Shown piece after piece: positions 9,660 through 21,039 of a DNA stretch of 23,908 bases. Numbering within the stretch: the stretch's first letter is position 1; the number at the start of each line of letters is the position of its first letter. The notes beneath the pieces are model-generated. The model was not told the DNA's origin and searched no databases. It saw nothing but the letters and a program-made list of their open reading frames with translations. Source of the stretch: a virus. The translations under genes and the position numbers were made by a program. The stretch is from IMG/VR virus record IMGVR_UViG_3300034521_000317, positions 1 through 23,908 of that record. One strand, 5' to 3'.

Positions 9660-11217
9660 ATTTGCCCAGATCGTCGAGGAGATTGTCCGCGGGGCGGAGG
9701 CCCTCGAGAAGGCCCTGACGCAGGGTCGGGAGCGGCTCAGCCAGATCGCCCACGGTCTGCAGACGCAACCGGCCGTCAGTCCGCTCCTCTCCGATCCGCG
9801 GATCCTTCCCCAGGGTCGGGAGCGGCTCAGCCAGATCGCCCACGGTCTGCAGACGCAACCGGCCGTCAGTCCGGTCCTCTTCGATCCGCGGATCCTTCCC
9901 CAGGGCCGGGAGCAGCCCCTGGCCTCCTCGACCGTGGTCAATCTCGATGTCCTGCAGGAGGTCAATGCCCGGGCCCTGACGCGGGCCCTCCAGGGGACGC
10001 GGCCCCCAGCCACACACGAGGCGATCTCGGGCGGGCAGGAGAAACGTCTCCTGGGACAGCTGGAGAAACTCACACCTTCGGCCGAGACGATTGTCCGGCA
10101 GCTCGTCGAGCAGCGGAGACGGCCGGAAGGGCGGGTGGAGGGGCTTAGTCGACGGACCGTACACGAGGCGATCTCGGGCGGGCAGGAGAAACGTCTCCTG
10201 GGACAGCTGGAGAAACTCACACCTTCGGCCGAGACGATTGCCCGGCAGCTCGTCGAGCAGCGGAGACGGCCGGAAGGGCGGGTGGAGGGGCTTAGTCGAC
10301 GGACCGTGAGGGGGCGGGGAGCTGTGCGGGTTACAGGCCCAAGGCGGCGGGCCTCAGGATTGGCGGGGCGGCTCCAGGACCTCCTCTGGACCCGTCGCGG
10401 GCGGGTCTGGCGGTGGCGGCTGGAGCGGAGTCGTTCGCCGCTCCGGCAGTACGTCGGGCGGTCTCTGACGCAGTTTGCCGAGCGGGGAAGCACACGTCAG
10501 CTCTTTGCCAGTCTGCGGAGGGCCCCGGTGGCGATGCGGGGCCCGCAGGCCATCCAGACTGCCCAAGCTGCAGGGATCAGCCAGGGGACGCTGGCCCGCG
10601 GGGCGGCCTTCGTGGGGATGATCGGTCAGGTCGGTGGGGCCCTGGCCCGGCTGGCCGCGGTCCTTACCGGGCCAGTGGGGGCGGCCCTGGCCCTGGTCAC
10701 GGCCCTGGCCTCAGCCACGGTGGCCCTTGTGCGGTGGGCAAGGGGCCTTGAGGACTCCGTCTTTGCCATCCAGCGGACGGCCGAGTCCTTCACGCGGGTC
10801 CATTCCGGGATGGCCGGCCTGGCCGCCCAGCTGGAGGCCGCCCGCCTCCAGGAGCAGCGGCGGGTCGCCGAGGGGACCTACCTCACGACCCGGCTCTACG
10901 CCGCGATGGCTGAACGCTACCGGCGGGGGGGAGAAGATCTCCGAATCCTGGGGACCAACCTGGCCAACCTGGGACGAACCGCCGGGCTGGCCGCCGGCGA
11001 GATGATCAAAGTCGCCACCGGGTTGAAGTTGCTGGAACGTTCGGCGGGCTGGCTCAACAGGCAGCTGGAATGGGGCCTGAACAAACTGGGGGTGGAGAAA
11101 GGCAAGGGCCCTCAAGACTGGTGGTTCGACCGCATGCAGCGGTTCCGCGACGTGCAGATCGATATTCCACAGCGGCAGAAGCCACCTGAGCTCTTCAACA
11201 AGCGTCCGAAGAAATGA
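9649..11217 (+). CDS. Tape measure protein (short)
   Basis: The protein has 522 residues, helical and rich in Gln, Arg, Ala and Leu, as tape measures are. It carries two tandem in-frame duplications near the N-terminus (30 and 49 residues). A hydrophobic stretch lies in the C-terminal half (GAAFVGMIGQVGGALARLAAVLTGPVGAALALVTALAS at about bases 10600-10730), typical of the membrane-active zone. The ATG at 9649 overlaps the end of the frameshifted chaperone. The upstream TTG at 9643 is less likely. At about 0.15 nm per residue (known rule for tape measures) the tail would be near 78 nm. The stop overlaps the next start as ATGA. No lytic domain is seen. Confidence 0.75.
   Translation: MLSEFAQIVEEIVRGAEALEKALTQGRERLSQIAHGLQTQPAVSPLLSDPRILPQGRERLSQIAHGLQTQPAVSPVLFDPRILPQGREQPLASSTVVNLDVLQEVNARALTRALQGTRPPATHEAISGGQEKRLLGQLEKLTPSAETIVRQLVEQRRRPEGRVEGLSRRTVHEAISGGQEKRLLGQLEKLTPSAETIARQLVEQRRRPEGRVEGLSRRTVRGRGAVRVTGPRRRASGLAGRLQDLLWTRRGRVWRWRLERSRSPLRQYVGRSLTQFAERGSTRQLFASLRRAPVAMRGPQAIQTAQAAGISQGTLARGAAFVGMIGQVGGALARLAAVLTGPVGAALALVTALASATVALVRWARGLEDSVFAIQRTAESFTRVHSGMAGLAAQLEAARLQEQRRVAEGTYLTTRLYAAMAERYRRGGEDLRILGTNLANLGRTAGLAAGEMIKVATGLKLLERSAGWLNRQLEWGLNKLGVEKGKGPQDWWFDRMQRFRDVQIDIPQRQKPPELFNKRPKK
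9721..9900 (+). repeat. 90-bp tandem duplication within the tape measure gene
   Basis: Two copies (9721-9810 and 9811-9900) differ at two bases. A third copy begins at 9901 (CAGGGCCGGGAGCAG) and then diverges. Each copy encodes a 30-residue unit starting QGRERLSQIAHG. Confidence 0.95.
10015..10308 (+). repeat. 147-bp tandem duplication within the tape measure gene
   Basis: Two copies (10015-10161 and 10162-10308) differ at only two bases: ATTGTCC versus ATTGCCC, and the last base. Each encodes a 49-residue unit starting HEAISGGQEKRLLGQ. The near-identity indicates a recent event. Confidence 0.95.
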
Positions 11218-13115: not shown

Positions 13116-13600
13116 GCCGCGTCGATACAAAACCCTCCGACATCCTGAGCTGGATCCTGCAGCTCCTCCGCAGTGGGCTGGAGATGCCCGCCGAGGCCTG
13201 TTTCCTGGCCTCGGATGACCTGGCCCCGGCCCGCATCCCGCCGCATCCCACGTTTTGCGTCGTCAGCCCCCTGGCCGGACAGTTTGTCGTCGAAGAGCAA
13301 ACCCCGGGCAATCTCTGCGAGCGCTGGGGCTTCCGGGTGCGGCTCTTCATGCGCCTCAGCCGCGATCGACCAGGACAAGATGATGTCCGCCTCACCGACC
13401 CTGACGACGGGGCCTTTGCCTGGAAAAGGAAGATTCTGTCCGCCCTGGTAGGAAAGGATTATGCGGGCTGGAATCTCCGCGGCACGGTCGCTGCCACAAA
13501 TGCCACGCCCCTGGTCTGGCTCCGGGGCAACCGCGGGGAGATCGAATACGCAAGTTTTGCCCTAGACTTCCTGATTGAATTCGATTGGAGCCTGGCGTGA
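13112..13600 (+). CDS. Small tail protein, tail-terminator-like
   Basis: The 162-residue product starts at the ATG at 13112, which has GAGGAG just upstream and overlaps the previous stop. A longer reading from 13013 would lie inside the upstream gene. The protein has an N-terminal helix (ILSWILQLLRSGLEMPAEACF), then strands around FCVVSPLAGQFVVEEQ, a central FRVRLFMRLS strand and a C-terminal ASFALDFLIEFDWSL strand. This mixed fold and size fit the tail terminator or a similar small ring protein, usually about 130-170 residues. The position after the large tail gene is not the classic one, so a different minor tail role is possible. Confidence 0.45.
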   Translation: MSRVDTKPSDILSWILQLLRSGLEMPAEACFLASDDLAPARIPPHPTFCVVSPLAGQFVVEEQTPGNLCERWGFRVRLFMRLSRDRPGQDDVRLTDPDDGAFAWKRKILSALVGKDYAGWNLRGTVAATNATPLVWLRGNRGEIEYASFALDFLIEFDWSLA

Positions 13601-16600
13601 GCGAACCCCTATCTGCCCCCGAGTTGATGCTTCAGTTGGATGGCGAGCCCTTCGCCATCCTAGCGGCCGATCGGGCGACTCGCCGCTGGTTCCGCCGCTA
13701 CTGGCCACCCGGGAGGTGGCCCTACACGGCCCCGCCCAATGCGCCTTTTGCGCCTTCCACACTCTGGCTGGGTGATACCAAGGCTGTGCCACTAGGGGGC
13801 TGGTCCAGTTTTCGCTGGGCCGATACCCTGCCACGGGAATATCATCTAAATTGGATGTGGTGCCCCAGTGGCGGGACCCGCTTCATGATCGGGCTCTTCC
13901 TCATCGACTCCCGCCGGGCCCGGGCCATTTATCAAGCTCTGGAAACTCAGACCTGGTTTGAACTTACGACTTGGACCAGTGATCCGCGAAACGATCAGGC
14001 GGGCATTCGCAGCCTGGCCGTCCGGCCCTTGGACATGATCCCGATTGCGGCCACCGAGGGGTTGCGCTCGACGACCACGACACCACCGCGGGAAGAGCTT
14101 TATCTGCTAGTCCTGACCGATCCGCGATTCTTCGCCCAATTCGTCTATCTTCCGATGGAGCCCCGCAGCTGGGTCCAAGTCATCGAGGCCCTGGAGCGGG
14201 ATTTGAATTGCGAGATCTGGTTCGATACTCCGGCCCTGGAGGAGCCGACTCGCTGGAGCGAACTCCCGCAGGAGGTCCTGAAAACTCTGCCCGATATCCA
14301 GCAGGGGATCGAGGCGACCACCACGACCACGATGCGGGTGTGCACGACATCGAGCTCCACCACCTCCACGAGCTCGACGACCTCCACCTCCACCAGCACC
14401 AGCACGACTTCCACGACGACCACTCTGCCGCCGATCCTGCCTGACCCCGAGGCCTGGAAGACACCCGGCCAACCCGCGACAGTGATCCTGGATGCCCTAG
14501 CGGCTAGCCTCGGGATGGTCGTCAGCCCCTTCATCCGGCTGATGGACGATCACGAGCGTTTTATCGTGATCTTCTCCAATCGGCCTTATGCCCTGGAGCA
14601 GGGCTTTGAAATCGATGTCGTTTCCGGCGACTCCGACTTGGTGCGCGATACCATTCCGCGGGCCCGCCGGGTGATCTTGGCAACGCCGCAGTGTACCAAG
14701 AAGAAGTACACCAGCGTCAGGCTTTTCGAGCAGGATACGGGCGTGGGCCGCGGGCAACGCTGGTACCAGAATACTGCCTGCAACATCTCCGAGCTCTGCG
14801 GGCAGGCTATCATCCAGCGGATCCGCGCCTTGAGCGAAGTCGTGGCCCCGGCACGATTAGCGCATGCCGCCATCGCCCCCGGATCATTCAATATCCTGCA
14901 ACGAAAAGCCTACTCCGATATCGATGCGGTGGAGTATCACTTCGGCCCGCAGCCCATCATTTATCTCTCCGCCCATCATACGGCCGTCGAACCCGCGACT
15001 TATGCTCTGACTTGCCGGGGCGAGGGGAGCGCCACAACCACCACCCCCTCACCATACGCGTGGGGAACTGGCAACTGCGAACCCTGCACCTGCACCTGGC
15101 GCTGTGAAGACGGGACGGCGGAAATCGTCTATGCGACCTGCCCCGACGGATGCCAGTGCGCCCCGCAGCCTCAGCGGTGCAGCCCCGGCGACTCCTGGGA
15201 GATCAGCGTCCCCTGCGTCACGACCACAACCCCACCCTGCAGCGGGAGCTGCCAGTGGGCGTGGGACGAGGAGAACCGGGCCTGGACCCTAAGCACAGAG
15301 GATTGCGCAGAAGGCTGTCAGTGCATCCCCCCGCAGTTCTGCGGTGGGGGCGACTGCCTCTCCGCCTCCACCGATTGCGTCCGCTCAGACTATGGACTCC
15401 CGACACCCGATTGCCGCGGGACATCGAGCACGACGACCACGGCCCCGGGATCAACGACCCCCTGCCCCTATCCCCCCGGGCACCCCTGCTGCCCCGAGAC
15501 GTGGACCTCGACCACGACCACCCGCGACTGCTGCTGCGGGACAGGCTGCAAAGGTTGCCAGTGGAAGGCGGTCCTGGGCTGGGGCGGGACCCTCGGCTGG
15601 GGCCTGGTCGCCCGCGACTGCTGCCCCGAATGCCCCTGCCCCTACCCGGACCGGGAGCCCCGCGACCAGTGCGACCTCTACCATACCAACTGCGGCCAAC
15701 GCCCAGCGCCAACCCCCACGACGTGTCCACCCTGCACCGGTGGCTGCGAGTGGATCTGGTCGCTCGACTGGAACCGCTGGATTAAGACCAAGGACACCTG
15801 CACCGAACGCTGGCGGGTGGGACGCCTCTGCCCCTGCAAAACTGGGGACCAGGAGGCCGAATGCCTCAGCTGCGTCTGTGATCCACCTTCTCAGCCCCCG
15901 AGCAATCCGGATTGCTCGCGCATTGCCTACACCTCCTGCCATTGCATTTGCGAGACAACGACGACCTGGCCCTATCCCTGCCCGCCGCCATCTCAACCGC
16001 CGCCCCCGACAACGACGAGTCTGGGCTGCGGGAGCCCCTGTATCATGACCTGGGATGGGTCTTCCTGGAACGGCGGAAATTGCCCTCCCGAATGCCCTTG
16101 CGCGGCCCCGCCTTTTCCCGGGACGCAAGCCGGAGAGTGCCGGCAATCCCTATGCCGCGGGGCGCCGCCCACGAGCACGACAACCACTATCACCCCCACG
16201 ACCACCTCCAGCACCACGAGCTCCAGCACGAGCTCCACGAGCTCCACCACGACGACTAGACCATGCGCCGGGTATTGCCTTTACGCCGTGATTGATTCGG
16301 CGGTCCAGATCATCTCGAATACTTGCCCGGCGGACTGCGCCTGTTCTCCCCCTCCCTGCTATCCGATGCAGCCCGGCCATACTGTTGCCGTCCCCTGCCT
16401 AAGTCCGTCCGAGGCCGCCACGACCACCACCTGCGGCCCCTGCACAGGCCAGTGCGAAGTTTATCCGGACGGGCGGATATTGCGGCAACAATGCAGCAGC
16501 GGCTGCAAGTGCGCGCCGATCCCTTGCGAATCCTTGGGCATCATGCCCCAGAATGACACATTCACGATCGGTTGTATTCCGCAAACCCAAACCACCACGT

Positions 16601-17823
16601 CTTGCGCCTGTATAGGGATGTGTTATTATGAGGTTACAAGCGATTACGCAGGCCGGATATCGATTAGCTCAAAGGGCAACACCTGTGCCACAGGAGCGTC
16701 GGGCCCGGCTTGTGGCTGTCCTGTCGTATGTCCCGAGGATTTTCCCGCGCCAGGCTTCTATGTCGTTGGCTGCACGAGCGATCAATCGAAATTCTCACGG
16801 ATATGCCCATGCACCGGACACTGTGAATGGCGTGGACAATTTGTTAACTTGTCTGGAGGAGAACCAACTGGCATTTGGAATTTGGCATTTTCAGACTGCA
16901 GCGAGAACTGTCCGAATTGCCGGGCGCCCGACTACCCGCCTAGCGCCAGTGGGCAAATCGCATACACGGATTGCGTGAGGACATTATCCCAGTTAGACCT
17001 AATGGCCCGAATGCCGTGCAGTGGCGAATGTACGTGGCAGTGGGATGCCTGGGATCGTGTCTGGCGCCTCACAAAAAGTTGCGCTCAAGGCTGCCTGTGC
17101 GTTCCGCCAAATGGGCCGGGCCCTATTTGGGATGAGGAACAGCAAATCTGGACTGATATGGTGGTGTCCCGGTGTATCGACCAACCACCGCCACCGCCGC
17201 CACCGCCGCCGACGACCACAACTACGACAAGCACGACCACCACCGCGGCGCCGACTACCAGCACCAGCACAACAACCACCCAAGCCCCGACGACCACGAC
17301 GACGAGCACGACCACCACCGCGGCGCCGACTACCAGCACCAGCACAACAACCACCCAAGCCCCGACGACCACGACGACGAGCACGACCACAACCGGCATA
17401 CCGACGACTACAACGGGGCAGCCATCCTGTGATGGAGATTGCACTTGGTGGTGGAGCGATCAAGAGCAGACATGGAACCTCATAGATGCAGGATGCTCAG
17501 AGGGTTGCGAGTGCCCACCGCCGCCCGAAGGGATCGGCGCATTCCACGGAGCTTATGCTGCTTTGGCATGCCTGCCTGCGACGACCACCACGACGAGCAC
17601 AACGTCAACGACCACCACCTCCACGCCCACAAGTACGAGCAGCAGCACGACCACGACACTTCATTGCAGTAGCTGCCAGTGTGTCTGGCAGTGGGACGAT
17701 GAATACGGCTGGATGCCCTATTATGACTGCACCTACGAGGGATGCAGCTCGTCCTGCGTCTGCGATAGCCCCCCACGATCCGGCTCGTATCAGGGAGAAA
17801 TTTACTATGTCCAGTGTCGTTAG
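13597..17823 (+). CDS. Giant tail hub/fibre protein with mucin-like Thr linkers and cysteine-rich modules
   Basis: The 1408-residue protein starts at a GTG overlapping the previous stop (GTGA). Residues ~1-480 look like a hub-type structural domain (VILDALAASLGMVVSPFIRL, FIVIFSNRPYALEQGFEIDV), itself interrupted by a Thr/Ser run at about 243-276. From ~490 to the end come about twelve cysteine-rich modules of the form C-x3-C-x-W-x-W ... C-x2-GC-x-C-x-P-P ... C. They are joined by Thr/Ser/Pro linkers (TTTTSTTTTAAP). No signal peptide is seen. Modules are diverse, so most arose long ago, but one linker holds a perfect 75-bp tandem repeat. The disulfide-rich modules and Thr linkers point to an extended, exposed receptor-binding fibre. 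Assembly in the cytoplasm would leave cysteines reduced, so disulfides would form only after release, or the clusters bind metal. Confidence 0.75.
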   Translation: MSEPLSAPELMLQLDGEPFAILAADRATRRWFRRYWPPGRWPYTAPPNAPFAPSTLWLGDTKAVPLGGWSSFRWADTLPREYHLNWMWCPSGGTRFMIGLFLIDSRRARAIYQALETQTWFELTTWTSDPRNDQAGIRSLAVRPLDMIPIAATEGLRSTTTTPPREELYLLVLTDPRFFAQFVYLPMEPRSWVQVIEALERDLNCEIWFDTPALEEPTRWSELPQEVLKTLPDIQQGIEATTTTTMRVCTTSSSTTSTSSTTSTSTSTSTTSTTTTLPPILPDPEAWKTPGQPATVILDALAASLGMVVSPFIRLMDDHERFIVIFSNRPYALEQGFEIDVVSGDSDLVRDTIPRARRVILATPQCTKKKYTSVRLFEQDTGVGRGQRWYQNTACNISELCGQAIIQRIRALSEVVAPARLAHAAIAPGSFNILQRKAYSDIDAVEYHFGPQPIIYLSAHHTAVEPATYALTCRGEGSATTTTPSPYAWGTGNCEPCTCTWRCEDGTAEIVYATCPDGCQCAPQPQRCSPGDSWEISVPCVTTTTPPCSGSCQWAWDEENRAWTLSTEDCAEGCQCIPPQFCGGGDCLSASTDCVRSDYGLPTPDCRGTSSTTTTAPGSTTPCPYPPGHPCCPETWTSTTTTRDCCCGTGCKGCQWKAVLGWGGTLGWGLVARDCCPECPCPYPDREPRDQCDLYHTNCGQRPAPTPTTCPPCTGGCEWIWSLDWNRWIKTKDTCTERWRVGRLCPCKTGDQEAECLSCVCDPPSQPPSNPDCSRIAYTSCHCICETTTTWPYPCPPPSQPPPPTTTSLGCGSPCIMTWDGSSWNGGNCPPECPCAAPPFPGTQAGECRQSLCRGAPPTSTTTTITPTTTSSTTSSSTSSTSSTTTTRPCAGYCLYAVIDSAVQIISNTCPADCACSPPPCYPMQPGHTVAVPCLSPSEAATTTTCGPCTGQCEVYPDGRILRQQCSSGCKCAPIPCESLGIMPQNDTFTIGCIPQTQTTTSCACIGMCYYEVTSDYAGRISISSKGNTCATGASGPACGCPVVCPEDFPAPGFYVVGCTSDQSKFSRICPCTGHCEWRGQFVNLSGGEPTGIWNLAFSDCSENCPNCRAPDYPPSASGQIAYTDCVRTLSQLDLMARMPCSGECTWQWDAWDRVWRLTKSCAQGCLCVPPNGPGPIWDEEQQIWTDMVVSRCIDQPPPPPPPPPTTTTTTSTTTTAAPTTSTSTTTTQAPTTTTTSTTTTAAPTTSTSTTTTQAPTTTTTSTTTTGIPTTTTGQPSCDGDCTWWWSDQEQTWNLIDAGCSEGCECPPPPEGIGAFHGAYAALACLPATTTTTSTTSTTTTSTPTSTSSSTTTTLHCSSCQCVWQWDDEYGWMPYYDCTYEGCSSSCVCDSPPRSGSYQGEIYYVQCR
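15073..17820 (+). repeat. Twelve six-cysteine modules in the fibre protein
   Basis: Protein-level repeats begin at roughly bases 15074, 15238, 15529, 15725, 16024, 16263, 16432, 16603, 16806, 17017, 17428 and 17665. Clearest copies read CSGSCQWAWDEENRAW, CSGECTWQWDAWDRVW and CDGDCTWWWSDQEQTW, each followed by a GCxCxPP segment and a closing Cys about 20 residues later. Spacing is variable and the DNA is not conserved, so these are old protein repeats. I cannot name a family. Confidence 0.75.
17230..17391 (+). repeat. Perfect 75-bp tandem repeat in a Thr linker
   Basis: Two identical 75-base units (17230-17304 and 17305-17379) and the start of a third encode a 25-residue unit rich in Thr (STTTTAAPTTSTSTTTTQAP). 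The absence of any difference points to very recent expansion. Confidence 0.9.
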
Positions 17824-17843
17824 AGATTGATTGAGGAGGTCAT

Positions 17844-19616
17844 ATGAAGCTCACGATCGGCATGGCGACCTATGCGGACTTCGACGGCGTCTACTTCACC
17901 GTCCAGTCCCTTCTGGTCCATCACCAGGAGGCCCTCCAGGACTGCGAGATCCTGATTGTCGATAATGCCCCGCACCTGCCCGTGGCCCAGACACTCCAGG
18001 GCTATTGCCGCTCCGTCTCGCTTCCGGAACGCCCCGTCCATTACGTCCCCTTCGGCCAGGCCGTCGGGACCAGCCCGGCCCGGGACGCCATTTTCCATCA
18101 TGCCAGCGGGGAATATGTCTTAGTGTTGGATTGCCACGTTCTGCTAGCCCTCGGCAGCATCAAGAGGCTGCGGGAATACCTGGAGGCCCATCACCCCTGC
18201 GATGACCTCCTCCAGGGGGTCCTCATCTCGGATGACGGGAGCCACGTCTGGACACACTTCCAGGATGTCTGGCGGGCCGAGATGTGGGGAATTTGGGGCA
18301 GTGACCCCCGCGGCCGAGACCCCCACGGGGAGCCCTTCCCGATCTTCGCCCAGGGACTGGGGCTCTTCGCCGCCCGCCGCGAGAGCTGGCTCGGCTTCCA
18401 CCCCCTGGCCCGCGGCTTCGGCGGAGAAGAATGCTACATCCACGAGAAATACCGCCAGGCTGGCCGCCAGTGCCTCTGCCTCCCTGCCGTCCGCTGGGTC
18501 CACCGCTTCGCCCGCCCCAATGGCGTCCCCTATCCCCTGACCCAGTGGAACAAGGTCCGCAACTATGTCCTGGAACTCCGCGAACTGGGACTGCCCCTCG
18601 ACCGGCTCCACCGCCACTTCGTGGAGGGCCTGGGTGAGGACCCGGGGGATGGGTCACCTCCCCAGGGGGCCCTCACGCGGATGAGCCAGGAGGACTGGGA
18701 CTACCTCGTGGCCGACCCCGAAAAACACCTGAACCCACCGGCCCGCCAAAAGGCCGGCTGCGGGGGCTGCGGGGCCACCAAGATTGAATCCATCGAGGAC
18801 TGGCTGGACTGGCAAAAGAAAAACGACCCGGACTTGGGCGGGCATCTTTCGCGGCTGCAAGAATTGGCCCAGGGGGCCAAATTGGTCGTGCAGCTAGGCC
18901 TCGGCCGGGGCGGGGCCACCGCCGCCTTTTTGGCCGCCCATCCCAAGCGGCTCGTATCCGTCGATGGCGCGCCTCCATCGTGGTTCGATTCCCTGCGGCA
19001 GTTGGCCGCGGCTGATTGGGAATTCCTGCTCGGCGATACCTTGCAAGTGGACCTGCCATCCGAACCCATCGATGTCTTGTTCATCGACACAAAGCACACT
19101 GCCGCTCAGTGCTACGCCGAACTGACCCGCTACGCCCCGCTGGTCCAGGGTCGGATCGTTCTCCACGACACCACAACCTTCGGCGAACGGGGCGAAGATG
19201 GCGGCCCGGGACTCCTCCCCGCCCTCCGCCGCTTCCTCAAAGAACATCCTGAATGGATCGTGTATAAGCATTTCGAGGACTGGAACGGACTGACGATCAT
19301 TTCCAATCTGCCGGAGGACCGACCGAAACTCCCCTCCACCGCCCGGCAGATCTTCAATTTCGCCCGGGCCGCCATCCACCATTACCGCGATGGGGCACGA
19401 TGGGTCGATGAGGCCACCCTGCAACACCGGCTCGATCTCTGCGCCCTCTGCGAACACCGCAGCGAGAACCGCTGCTCGATCTGCGGCTGCTACCTGATCG
19501 ATGCCCCGACGGGGCAAGGCGGAAAGGCCGAATGGGCAGACCAAGCCTGTCCGCTAGGGAAGTGGCTCCCCGTGGAACCGGCCCCCGAACCTACTGCTAC
19601 GGATAATGAATCATGA
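17844..19616 (+). CDS. Glycosyltransferase-methyltransferase-zinc-knuckle fusion protein
   Basis: The 590-residue protein joins three parts. Residues 1-~250 form a GT-A glycosyltransferase: a start MKLTIGMATYADFDG, a D-x-H metal motif (DCH, 96-98, inside VLVLDCHVLL) and GFGGEECYIHEKYRQAG at 191-207. The D-x-H and GGEE features recall polypeptide GalNAc transferases (GT27), though the match is loose. Residues ~340-490 form a class I methyltransferase of the Methyltransf_24 type, with VVQLGLGRGG (348-357), FIDTKH (413-418) and a HDT (441-443). The C-terminal ~60 residues hold Cys at 533, 536, 544, 547, 549 and 569 (CALC...CSICGC...ACPLGKW), a zinc-knuckle. A strong GAGGAGGT site precedes the ATG. 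It follows the fibre gene by 20 bases, so it probably modifies the fibre. Confidence 0.8.
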   Translation: MKLTIGMATYADFDGVYFTVQSLLVHHQEALQDCEILIVDNAPHLPVAQTLQGYCRSVSLPERPVHYVPFGQAVGTSPARDAIFHHASGEYVLVLDCHVLLALGSIKRLREYLEAHHPCDDLLQGVLISDDGSHVWTHFQDVWRAEMWGIWGSDPRGRDPHGEPFPIFAQGLGLFAARRESWLGFHPLARGFGGEECYIHEKYRQAGRQCLCLPAVRWVHRFARPNGVPYPLTQWNKVRNYVLELRELGLPLDRLHRHFVEGLGEDPGDGSPPQGALTRMSQEDWDYLVADPEKHLNPPARQKAGCGGCGATKIESIEDWLDWQKKNDPDLGGHLSRLQELAQGAKLVVQLGLGRGGATAAFLAAHPKRLVSVDGAPPSWFDSLRQLAAADWEFLLGDTLQVDLPSEPIDVLFIDTKHTAAQCYAELTRYAPLVQGRIVLHDTTTFGERGEDGGPGLLPALRRFLKEHPEWIVYKHFEDWNGLTIISNLPEDRPKLPSTARQIFNFARAAIHHYRDGARWVDEATLQHRLDLCALCEHRSENRCSICGCYLIDAPTGQGGKAEWADQACPLGKWLPVEPAPEPTATDNES

Positions 19617-20359
19617 GCAATGGCATGATTGCGGCCCTGTGCCCGACTTTTCGACGGCCCGGGTTGACTGGCAACGCCGCGGCCTGTTTCCTCGCCCAAC
19701 GCTGCGAGCTCCCGCGGCGGATGCTGATTTGGGAGGATGGCGGGGCCCTTGAGGCGGCGACCATCGGCAGTATCCAAATCGTCACTTCGCGGCGATTTCC
19801 CGATCTGGGCTCCAAATACAATGCTCTGGCCGAGCGAGCCATCGAACTCTGGGACCCGGATTATCTGGCGATCTGGGAGGACGACGACATTTATCTCACC
19901 TGGCACCTGGAGACCTCCATTGTGGCCATGATTCAGAGCGGGGCCCTATGGGCTAAGCCCTCCCGGGTCTGGAGCCTCTACACCGGGCGGCTGGAGGAAG
20001 AACCGGCCGCCGGGCGGTTCCACGGCTCCCTCGTCCTCACCCGCCGGGCCTGGGAACAGGTCCCCTGGCCCACCCACGGGCGGGCTGACTTCGACCAGGA
20101 GTTCATGCGACATCTGCAGGAAGAATGCGGCCCGCCGGCCGATCCCCTCCTCATCGAGCCCCGCCCAGGCTACATCTTCCGCTACGGCTCAACCCGCTCC
20201 TACCACGCCCAGCACTTCATGCGGGGGACGGCCGATATAACCTGGTACGAGACTGTCGCGGAGCACGTGCCAGAACTCCCGTCGGCGGAACTGCGCATCG
20301 CGTTCGACGACGAGACTGCGGCAATTCTCGGAGTCGTGAGAGGCGAGTATGACGGCTGA
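19613..20359 (+). CDS. GT-A family glycosyltransferase
   Basis: The 248-residue protein starts in an ATGA overlap with the fusion gene. It has an N-terminal Rossmann-like start (MIAALCPTFRRPGLTGNAAACF) and a D-x-D-type motif EDDD at 89-92 in LAIWEDDDIYL, which normally holds the metal and sugar nucleotide. A later GRADFDQEFMRHL segment fits the acceptor-side helix. It is smaller than average for GT2 enzymes. Donor and acceptor cannot be told from the sequence. Coupled translation makes it a partner of the neighbouring transferases. Confidence 0.75.
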   Translation: MSNGMIAALCPTFRRPGLTGNAAACFLAQRCELPRRMLIWEDGGALEAATIGSIQIVTSRRFPDLGSKYNALAERAIELWDPDYLAIWEDDDIYLTWHLETSIVAMIQSGALWAKPSRVWSLYTGRLEEEPAAGRFHGSLVLTRRAWEQVPWPTHGRADFDQEFMRHLQEECGPPADPLLIEPRPGYIFRYGSTRSYHAQHFMRGTADITWYETVAEHVPELPSAELRIAFDDETAAILGVVRGEYDG

Positions 20360-20600
20360 AGAACTCAAGGATGCAATCGTCCGCTCGCTGATCTATAACC
20401 GGCTGACGTATGAAGGCCGCTTGTTATATGAGGAAAAGAGGGGTCTTAGCGATGGATATCCTGCACATCATCACTCCGGTATCTCGGCCGCAGAATCTCA
20501 CCGCCCTGGCCTTATCACTGCGGGGCCTCTTGAGTATTCCCTGGCGCTGGTGGGTCATCTTCGACCGCAACGTCGCCGATCTGCCAGCCCGGCCGCCTGA
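20349..20600 (+). CDS. Possible small protein overlapping two glycosyltransferases
   Basis: The start ATG overlaps the end of the previous gene and has an AGAGGCGAG site. The first ~33 residues (MTAEELKDAIVRSLIYNRLTYEGRLLYEE) look like a genuine helix. Beyond that the frame overlaps the next transferase by ~150 bases and becomes low-quality (RRRSASPAA). It could be a real small gene with a junk tail, or a remnant N-terminus displaced by a frameshift. Confidence 0.35.
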   Translation: MTAEELKDAIVRSLIYNRLTYEGRLLYEEKRGLSDGYPAHHHSGISAAESHRPGLITAGPLEYSLALVGHLRPQRRRSASPAA

Positions 20601-21039
20601 TTTGCCCCTGGCTCACTGGGATTATGGCCAAGAATCCGATTCTGTGGCGGGCTATAGCCTCCGCAACGAATGCCTGGAAAAAATCGATTCAGGCTGGATT
20701 TATTTCCTCGATGACGACAACCTGATCCACCCCCATTTGGAAATCGTCTTCCTGCTGACCCGCCGCTCATTTCCCGCGGCCCAATGGTTCATATTTCGCC
20801 AGATTCGGCCTGATGGGACCATCTATTTGCGGCCCCAAGTCCCGCCCCGCGTGAACGCCGTGGACATCGGGCAGTGTGTCCTACGGCGGGACCTGATGAA
20901 AAACACGGGAGATCCCGTCCCGCCCTGGAGCTTTGAGCATCGCCCCGATGCCGATGGGCTGCTGTACGAGCAATTGAGCCGGGATGTAGCACCGATCGCG
21001 CTCGACCTCGAGGCGACCTATTACAATGCCCTCAGATAA
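20452..21039 (+). CDS. Small GT-A glycosyltransferase
   Basis: From the ATG at 20452 the protein has 195 residues. It starts with MDILHIITPVSRPQN, a typical first strand of a GT-A fold, and carries WIYFLDDDNLIHPH, whose DDD (87-89) is the metal-binding D-x-D. A possible start at 20410 adds MKAACYMRKRG, which lacks a ribosome site and does not resemble the family, so I prefer 20452, with GAGGGG ahead of it. At 195 residues it is short for a complete enzyme. It may depend on the neighbours or transfer to a simple acceptor. It ends the modification cassette. Confidence 0.7.
   Translation: MDILHIITPVSRPQNLTALALSLRGLLSIPWRWWVIFDRNVADLPARPPDLPLAHWDYGQESDSVAGYSLRNECLEKIDSGWIYFLDDDNLIHPHLEIVFLLTRRSFPAAQWFIFRQIRPDGTIYLRPQVPPRVNAVDIGQCVLRRDLMKNTGDPVPPWSFEHRPDADGLLYEQLSRDVAPIALDLEATYYNALR

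What the first reader, a model, noticed from the sequence alone, without database searches (positions are those of the whole stretch)
13597..21039. Mucin-like, cysteine-modular fibre with its own glycosyl- and methyltransferase cassette
A 1408-residue fibre with Thr-rich linkers and twelve cysteine modules is followed within 20 bases by a glycosyltransferase-methyltransferase-zinc fusion and two more glycosyltransferases in coupled frames. The first enzyme has a D-x-H motif and a GGEE segment resembling mucin-type GalNAc transferases, whose acceptors are Thr/Ser-rich linkers. This suggests a phage system for O-glycosylated, methylated tail fibres. To my knowledge such a module is little described, though I cannot search for precedents.
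Basis: inference. Interest (0 to 1): 0.9.

Follow-up and report, generated by a model that had tools for sequence, protein, structure and literature searches.

The report
Phage mucin-like fibre with glycosyltransferase cassette
A virus of hot-spring Planctomycetes-like bacteria carries a long threonine-rich, cysteine-module fibre gene followed directly by a sugar-adding enzyme whose predicted shape best matches the animal enzymes that start mucin glycosylation; the pairing recurs across many uncultured phages, so these phages probably coat their own tail fibres with sugars.

Summary
In detail: a 1408-aa fibre with 12 six-cysteine modules and Thr-rich linkers, a 20-nt gap, a GT–methyltransferase–Zn fusion (GT1), then two more GT-A genes.

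(1) GT1's predicted structure (pLDDT 89.6) matches polypeptide GalNAc-transferases above all other solved structures (29 top entries; best Z 24.2, 2.7 Å over 253 aa). The D-x-H, GGE(E/N) and His220 positions align.

(2) Linkage holds both ways. Of 31 GT1 clusters, 20 have a Ser/Thr run in the gene just upstream, against 16 of 510 background ORFs. Searching by Cys-module DNA alone, all 20 genes with downstream sequence have a GT1-family gene within two genes. Upstream proteins are often otherwise unrelated; Thr-rich linkers are the shared feature.

Best reading: the phage O-glycosylates its own fibre linkers. Sugar, methylation and virion glycosylation are unproven.

Virion glycosylation itself is known: mycobacteriophage Che8 carries an architecturally parallel but dissimilar GT–methyltransferase fusion plus two GTs. 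So this is a new variant of a known kind: mucin-type-like initiator, dedicated fibre, absent from 50,697 phage records at tblastn sensitivity. Thr runs alone do not predict GT1 (2 of 55).

The parts
13597..17823 (+). Fibre gene, 1408 aa: N-terminal part (aa 1-480), Cys modules, Thr-rich linkers
   Evidence: no Pfam/PHROG/NCBIfam hit
13597..15036 (+). Fibre N-terminal region, found only in the Thermogutta-type phages seen here; fold unknown (model pLDDT 37)
15073..17817 (+). Twelve six-cysteine modules (consensus CxGxCxWxW...C..GC.CxPP...C)
14314..14442 (+). Thr/Ser-rich linker aa 240-282, conserved in L009
16159..16257 (+). Thr/Ser-rich linker aa 855-887
17182..17427 (+). Long Pro/Thr mucin-like linker aa 1196-1277, including 75-bp tandem repeats (17213-17395)
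17572..17661 (+). Thr/Ser-rich linker aa 1326-1355
17844..19616 (+). GT1: GT-A glycosyltransferase + methyltransferase + C-terminal Cys/Zn-like module, 590 aa
17844..18623 (+). GT1 catalytic domain, GalNAc-transferase-like; D96/H98, G193-G194-E195, H220
18780..19343 (+). Methyltransferase-like domain (Methyltransf_24 core aa 349-442)
19392..19565 (+). C-terminal Cys (Zn-like) module, phrog_13558/DUF6171-like
19613..20359 (+). GT2, second GT-A-like glycosyltransferase (homologue in L010 weakly PF00535)
20452..21039 (+). GT3, third small GT-A-like glycosyltransferase (DDDN motif; longer start at 20410 possible)
18774..19106 (+). Allelic block: 122 of 333 positions differ from the otherwise near-identical contig L002/L003
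20475..20981 (+). Second allelic block (GT3): 42 of 507 positions differ

Best explanation
A self-glycosylation cassette of a tailed phage. The fibre (Cys modules joined by Thr/Pro linkers, encoded at the distal end of the tail operon) is made and, before assembly, GT1 transfers a sugar from a nucleotide-sugar donor directly onto Thr/Ser hydroxyls of the linkers, using a mucin-initiating (GalNAc-transferase-like) active site. GT2 and GT3 extend the glycan. The fused methyltransferase may cap it, and the Zn-like module may recruit the substrate. The glycans would stiffen and protect the extended linkers and alter how the fibre is recognised. SHOWN here: gene anatomy, GT-A/GalNAc-transferase-like predicted fold and motifs, two-way genetic linkage, local allele differences inside the cassette. 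INFERRED: acceptor, sugar, order of steps, methylation, benefit.
For: GT1 model: top 29 PDB entries by VIA-align are polypeptide GalNAc-transferases (Z 24.2-20.6) ahead of K4CP 20.3, B4GALNT1 and RmlT 19.5, TarS 18.7 (Foldseek E to 5e-14). D96, H98, G193, G194 and H220 are invariant in 33 diverse homologues, and the GGE/His segment aligns ungapped to GalNAc-T7. Linkage: the -1 gene has a Ser/Thr run in 20/31 GT1 clusters (18/19 if >=400 aa) versus 16/510 (3/60) other ORFs, Fisher P 3e-19 and 9e-14; positions -2, +1, +2: 2/30, 0/28, 0/25. Reverse: 20/20 testable Cys-module genes have GT1 within two genes downstream. Upstream proteins differ (Calx-beta, ConA-lectin domain, propeller-like, Cys modules) but share Thr tracts. 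Portal relatives L007 and L008 had no detected module or GT1 (negative by search only). Precedent: Che8 GT2-Methyltransf_24 fusion plus two GTs, Che8 virions being reported glycosylated.
Against: No biochemical data. Thr-run proteins in viral contigs usually lack GT1 (2/55), so linkers can exist without it. About a third of GT1 clusters have no Ser/Thr run in the -1 gene. In five held-out chromosomal loci the strict run criterion held in 2 and a looser Thr-rich linker in 4. The SAM loop is degenerate in many MT domains. Sequence similarity to GalNAc-transferases is weak (E 0.0016 at best).
Confidence: 0.7

Rival explanations
1. The cassette modifies host surface glycans (serotype conversion / superinfection exclusion), and its place beside the fibre is incidental.
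For: Phage GT2 enzymes often do this (established knowledge); 3 of 33 GT1 homologues weakly hit GtrB-like PHROGs. A chromosomal copy sits outside an obvious phage (L108).
Against: No GtrA/flippase-like partner was recognised and GT1-3 have no clear transmembrane segment. Linkage to the immediately upstream Thr-rich gene is very specific. The chromosomal copy also lies behind a protein with a Thr-rich tail.
Confidence: 0.1
2. GT1 glycosylates virion proteins generally (capsid, tail tube), as in Che8, rather than the fibre linkers in particular.
For: Same GT-MT fusion + two GT architecture as Che8, whose capsid and tail proteins carry glycans.
Against: In Che8 the GT genes lie at the genome end, far from their targets; here GT1 follows the Thr-rich gene in clusters whose upstream proteins are otherwise unrelated. 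No similarity of GT1 to Che8 GTs.
Confidence: 0.13
3. The enzymes hypermodify phage DNA.
For: Phage GTs can glycosylate DNA (PMC12619734 says so).
Against: No base-hypermodification gene was recognised in this 23.9-kb fragment; the GT sits in the tail operon; its closest folds are protein-directed GTs.
Confidence: 0.04

Closest known systems
Mycobacteriophage Che8 glycosyltransferase cassette gp108-110 (virion glycosylation; Freeman et al. 2023, cited in PMC12619734 and PMC11256854)
   Same: GT2-Methyltransf_24 fusion followed by two small GTs in overlapping frames; a phage that glycosylates its own virion
   Different: No detectable sequence similarity to GT1-3, no GGE motif or GT1-like D-x-H; not next to its substrate genes; substrates are capsid and tail-tube proteins, not a Thr-rich Cys-module fibre
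Corndog-type cluster O mycobacteriophages (PMC4351075)
   Same: O-methyltransferase, two GTs and a GlcNAc-transferase inside the structural operon, proposed to modify the capsid
   Different: Separate genes between portal and protease; only proposed
Polypeptide GalNAc-transferases (GT27)
   Same: Predicted catalytic domain fold, D-x-H, GGE(N/E), third His; Thr-rich linkers next door
   Different: No ricin-type lectin domain or membrane anchor recognised; fused to MT/Zn-like module or standing alone; sugar unknown; weak sequence similarity

Membership tests
Polypeptide GalNAc-transferases (GT27) | Catalytic GT-A domain of this fold | tested here: met
   29 best VIA-align entries, Z 24.2-20.6, 2.6-3.3 A over ~250 aa; predicted model, not an experimental structure
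Polypeptide GalNAc-transferases (GT27) | D-x-H plus third His metal ligand and GGE motif | tested here: met
   D96, H98, G193, G194, H220 invariant in 33 homologues; GGE and His aligned ungapped with GalNAc-T7; the ligand roles are established knowledge of GalNAc-T2
Polypeptide GalNAc-transferases (GT27) | C-terminal ricin-type lectin domain | tested here: not met
   Pfam scans find MT and DUF6171-like regions instead, or nothing
Polypeptide GalNAc-transferases (GT27) | Family-level sequence similarity | tested here: inconclusive
   Best profile E-value 0.0016, GalNAc-T7
Polypeptide GalNAc-transferases (GT27) | Transfers GalNAc from UDP-GalNAc to Ser/Thr | not testable with these tools
   needs enzyme assay
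Che8-type virion glycosylation cassette | GT2-Methyltransf_24 fusion plus two GTs | tested here: met
Che8-type virion glycosylation cassette | Homology of the enzymes | tested here: not met
   profile and hhalign comparisons not significant
Che8-type virion glycosylation cassette | Glycans on virion proteins | not testable with these tools
   needs mass spectrometry
Gtr serotype-conversion systems | GtrB-like GT with membrane helices and GtrA flippase | tested here: not met
   19-residue hydropathy maxima 0.8-1.4 in GT1-3; no such neighbour recognised

The most novel reading that the evidence does not exclude
Many uncultured phages carry their own mucin-type O-glycosylation systems: a polypeptide GalNAc-transferase-like initiator dedicated to Thr/Pro-rich linkers of the fibre encoded next door, with extending GTs and possibly a methyl cap, and with enzyme domains swapped between near-clonal phages so that the fibre glycan varies.
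Probability: 0.5. Interest if true: 0.8.

Novelty: new variant of a known kind. Interest (0 to 1): 0.66.

Why it matters
It would mean that mucin-like protein O-glycosylation, familiar from animals, has a widespread phage counterpart with a dedicated tail protein, and it would give an assignable function to a large set of unannotated phage GTs and Thr-rich tail proteins. It makes a direct test possible: enzyme and acceptor are adjacent and can be co-expressed. It may also supply simple cytoplasmic tools for O-glycosylating designed Thr-rich peptides.

Tried and rejected
Fibre N-terminus folding (3 sequences): pLDDT 37, not used. PDB search with the Cys-module profile: no hit. Named phages: tblastn of window GT1, the fibre and three diverse GT1 homologues against 50,697 records gave no match. 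Thr runs as predictor of GT1: rejected, 2/55; genes next to Thr-run genes in general show only a few GT families. Four of the 27 pattern hits (L122, L125, L129, L137) were chance reading frames and were dropped. Papers on Thr-rich or mucin-like phage fibres with GTs: none found in the held library, which lacks most subscription journals; Freeman et al. 2023 itself was not held. DNA hypermodification and serotype conversion were considered and ranked low.

Full report
WHAT IS THERE. The window is a 23.9-kb IMG/VR record with capsid, Mu-type portal, tail and tape-measure-like genes, then the fibre, GT1, GT2, GT3 and, further on, a tyrosine integrase. The fibre (13597-17823) has 1408 aa, 12 modules with six conserved Cys, and Thr/Ser/Pro linkers. 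GT1 follows after 20 nt behind a strong ribosome-binding site. Its 590 aa comprise a family-2 GT domain, a Methyltransf_24-like domain (just under Pfam's cut-off) and a C-terminal Cys module. GT2 overlaps GT1 by 4 nt; GT3's conserved start lies about 90 nt further on.

RELATIVES. A genome-contig search with GT1 found a complete syntenic fibre and GT1 in Thermogutta sp. MAG-77 (L009; its GT2/GT3 region looks broken), fibre–GT1–GT2–(ParB-like)–GT3 in a Chloroflexota-binned MAG (L010), and a lone GT1-like gene in Chthoniobacter (L011). Thermogutta-type Planctomycetota are therefore a plausible host, by inference. A viral relative (L005, portal 65% identical) keeps a 90-aa Thr-linker + single-module protein directly before a GT1 N-terminal domain, with GT2/GT3 remnants behind. 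A viral-contig scan gave 357 GT1 relatives, of which 80 loci were fetched.

LINKAGE TEST 1 (from enzyme to fibre). Clustering GT1 domains at 70% identity gave 33 clusters, 31 with an upstream gene. The gene immediately upstream contains a run of five or more Ser/Thr in 20/31, versus 16/510 other ORFs on the same contigs. For upstream genes of at least 400 aa the figures are 18/19 versus 3/60. The effect is confined to position -1. Fifteen of the 20 are Cys-rich fibres like this one. The other five are not, and the wider set of upstream proteins includes Calx-beta, ConA-lectin and propeller-like tail proteins; what they share is Thr tracts. Fisher P values treat clusters as independent, which is only approximately true.

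LINKAGE TEST 2 (from fibre to enzyme). A DNA pattern for the Cys module alone, blind to GT1, found 27 stretches, of which 23 are real module genes. All 20 with sequence downstream have a GT1-family gene within two genes (one is the near-identical contig of the window); three end at the contig edge. Many belong to one freshwater-like lineage, so the independent number is small (about five). In Pirellulales genomes GT1 occurs in 4 of 397, each behind a Thr-rich protein. In five further chromosomal loci used as a held-out set, the strict run criterion held in two and a looser Thr-rich linker in four. Portal relatives L007 and L008 had no detected module and no detected GT1.

LIMIT. Thr runs alone are not enough: of 55 Thr-run genes sampled from viral contigs only two had GT1 next door. 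That is still far above the rarity of GT1, but most Thr-rich phage proteins do without it.

WHAT THE ENZYME IS. In 33 homologues D96, H98, G193, G194 and H220 are invariant. A profile of them finds N-terminal-half similarity to several GT2 enzymes, but alignments reaching through the GGE/His end were to GalNAc-T7, -T4 and -T1 only (E 0.0016, 0.02, 0.13). A model of GT1 (mean pLDDT 89.6) was compared with the PDB: the first 29 entries by VIA-align are polypeptide GalNAc-transferases, Z 24.2 to 20.6, ahead of K4CP, B4GALNT1, RmlT and TarS. The gap to the next family is small, so this shows the nearest fold, not the sugar. GT1 lacks the lectin domain of GT27 and is not filed as a member; it is judged to work like one.

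METHYLTRANSFERASE. The window, L002 and L009 keep a Gly-rich SAM loop and the IDxxH...HD segment; many relatives have a degenerate loop and L010's is eroded. Methylation is therefore possible here but not a general rule.

VARIATION. Against contig L002/L003 the window has one SNP in about 15 kb upstream of the cassette, but 122/333 differences in a sharply bounded MT-domain block and 42/507 in GT3. The simplest reading is recombination with a divergent relative inside the modifying enzymes, which fits selection on the glycan; an assembly chimera cannot be excluded.

PRECEDENT. Phage virion glycosylation is known. Che8 gp108 is, by our scan, a GT2–Methyltransf_24 fusion followed by two GTs, and Che8 is reported to carry glycans on capsid and tail proteins (cited in PMC12619734 and PMC11256854). 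Corndog has an O-methyltransferase, two GTs and a GlcNAc-transferase proposed to modify its capsid (PMC4351075). The same architecture with unrelated sequences supports the functional reading and sets the novelty: a new variant with a GalNAc-transferase-like initiator and a dedicated Thr-rich, usually Cys-modular, fibre, not matched in 50,697 phage records.

VERDICT. Most likely (0.7) a fibre O-glycosylation cassette. Anatomy, predicted fold and linkage are shown; acceptor, sugar, methyl cap and benefit are inferred.

Noticed in passing
9721-9913 and 10014-10307: Near-perfect tandem duplications (90 bp x2.1; 147 bp x2.0) in frame inside the tape-measure-like gene, a recent tail-length variation perhaps.
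   Followed up: no
L010:3898-5658: GT1 of the Chloroflexota-binned MAG carries its own Thr-rich linker (TTTSTRAPWWPDTPEGTTTYPR) between GT and MT domains, so it might modify itself.
   Followed up: no
L108:8362-10230 (G075 chromosome): A GT1 gene in a bacterial chromosome with no obvious phage genes nearby, behind a 193-aa protein ending in a Thr-rich tail and followed by another GT: the pair may have been taken over by the host.
   Followed up: partly
L109 and L282: In two planctomycete chromosomes the Cys-module/Thr protein and GT1 sit beside very long genes with YD-repeat-like sequence (2060 aa and at least 1573 aa).
   Followed up: no
L005:14344-14616: The fibre is reduced to a 90-aa Thr-linker plus one Cys module, yet is still followed by a GT1 N-terminal domain with GT2/GT3 remnants.
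   Followed up: partly
L127/L151 (record from IMG id 2836862175): A Cys-module fibre plus GT1-MT-Zn in a record that may come from an isolate genome (judged from the id form only); a possible cultivable test system.
   Followed up: no
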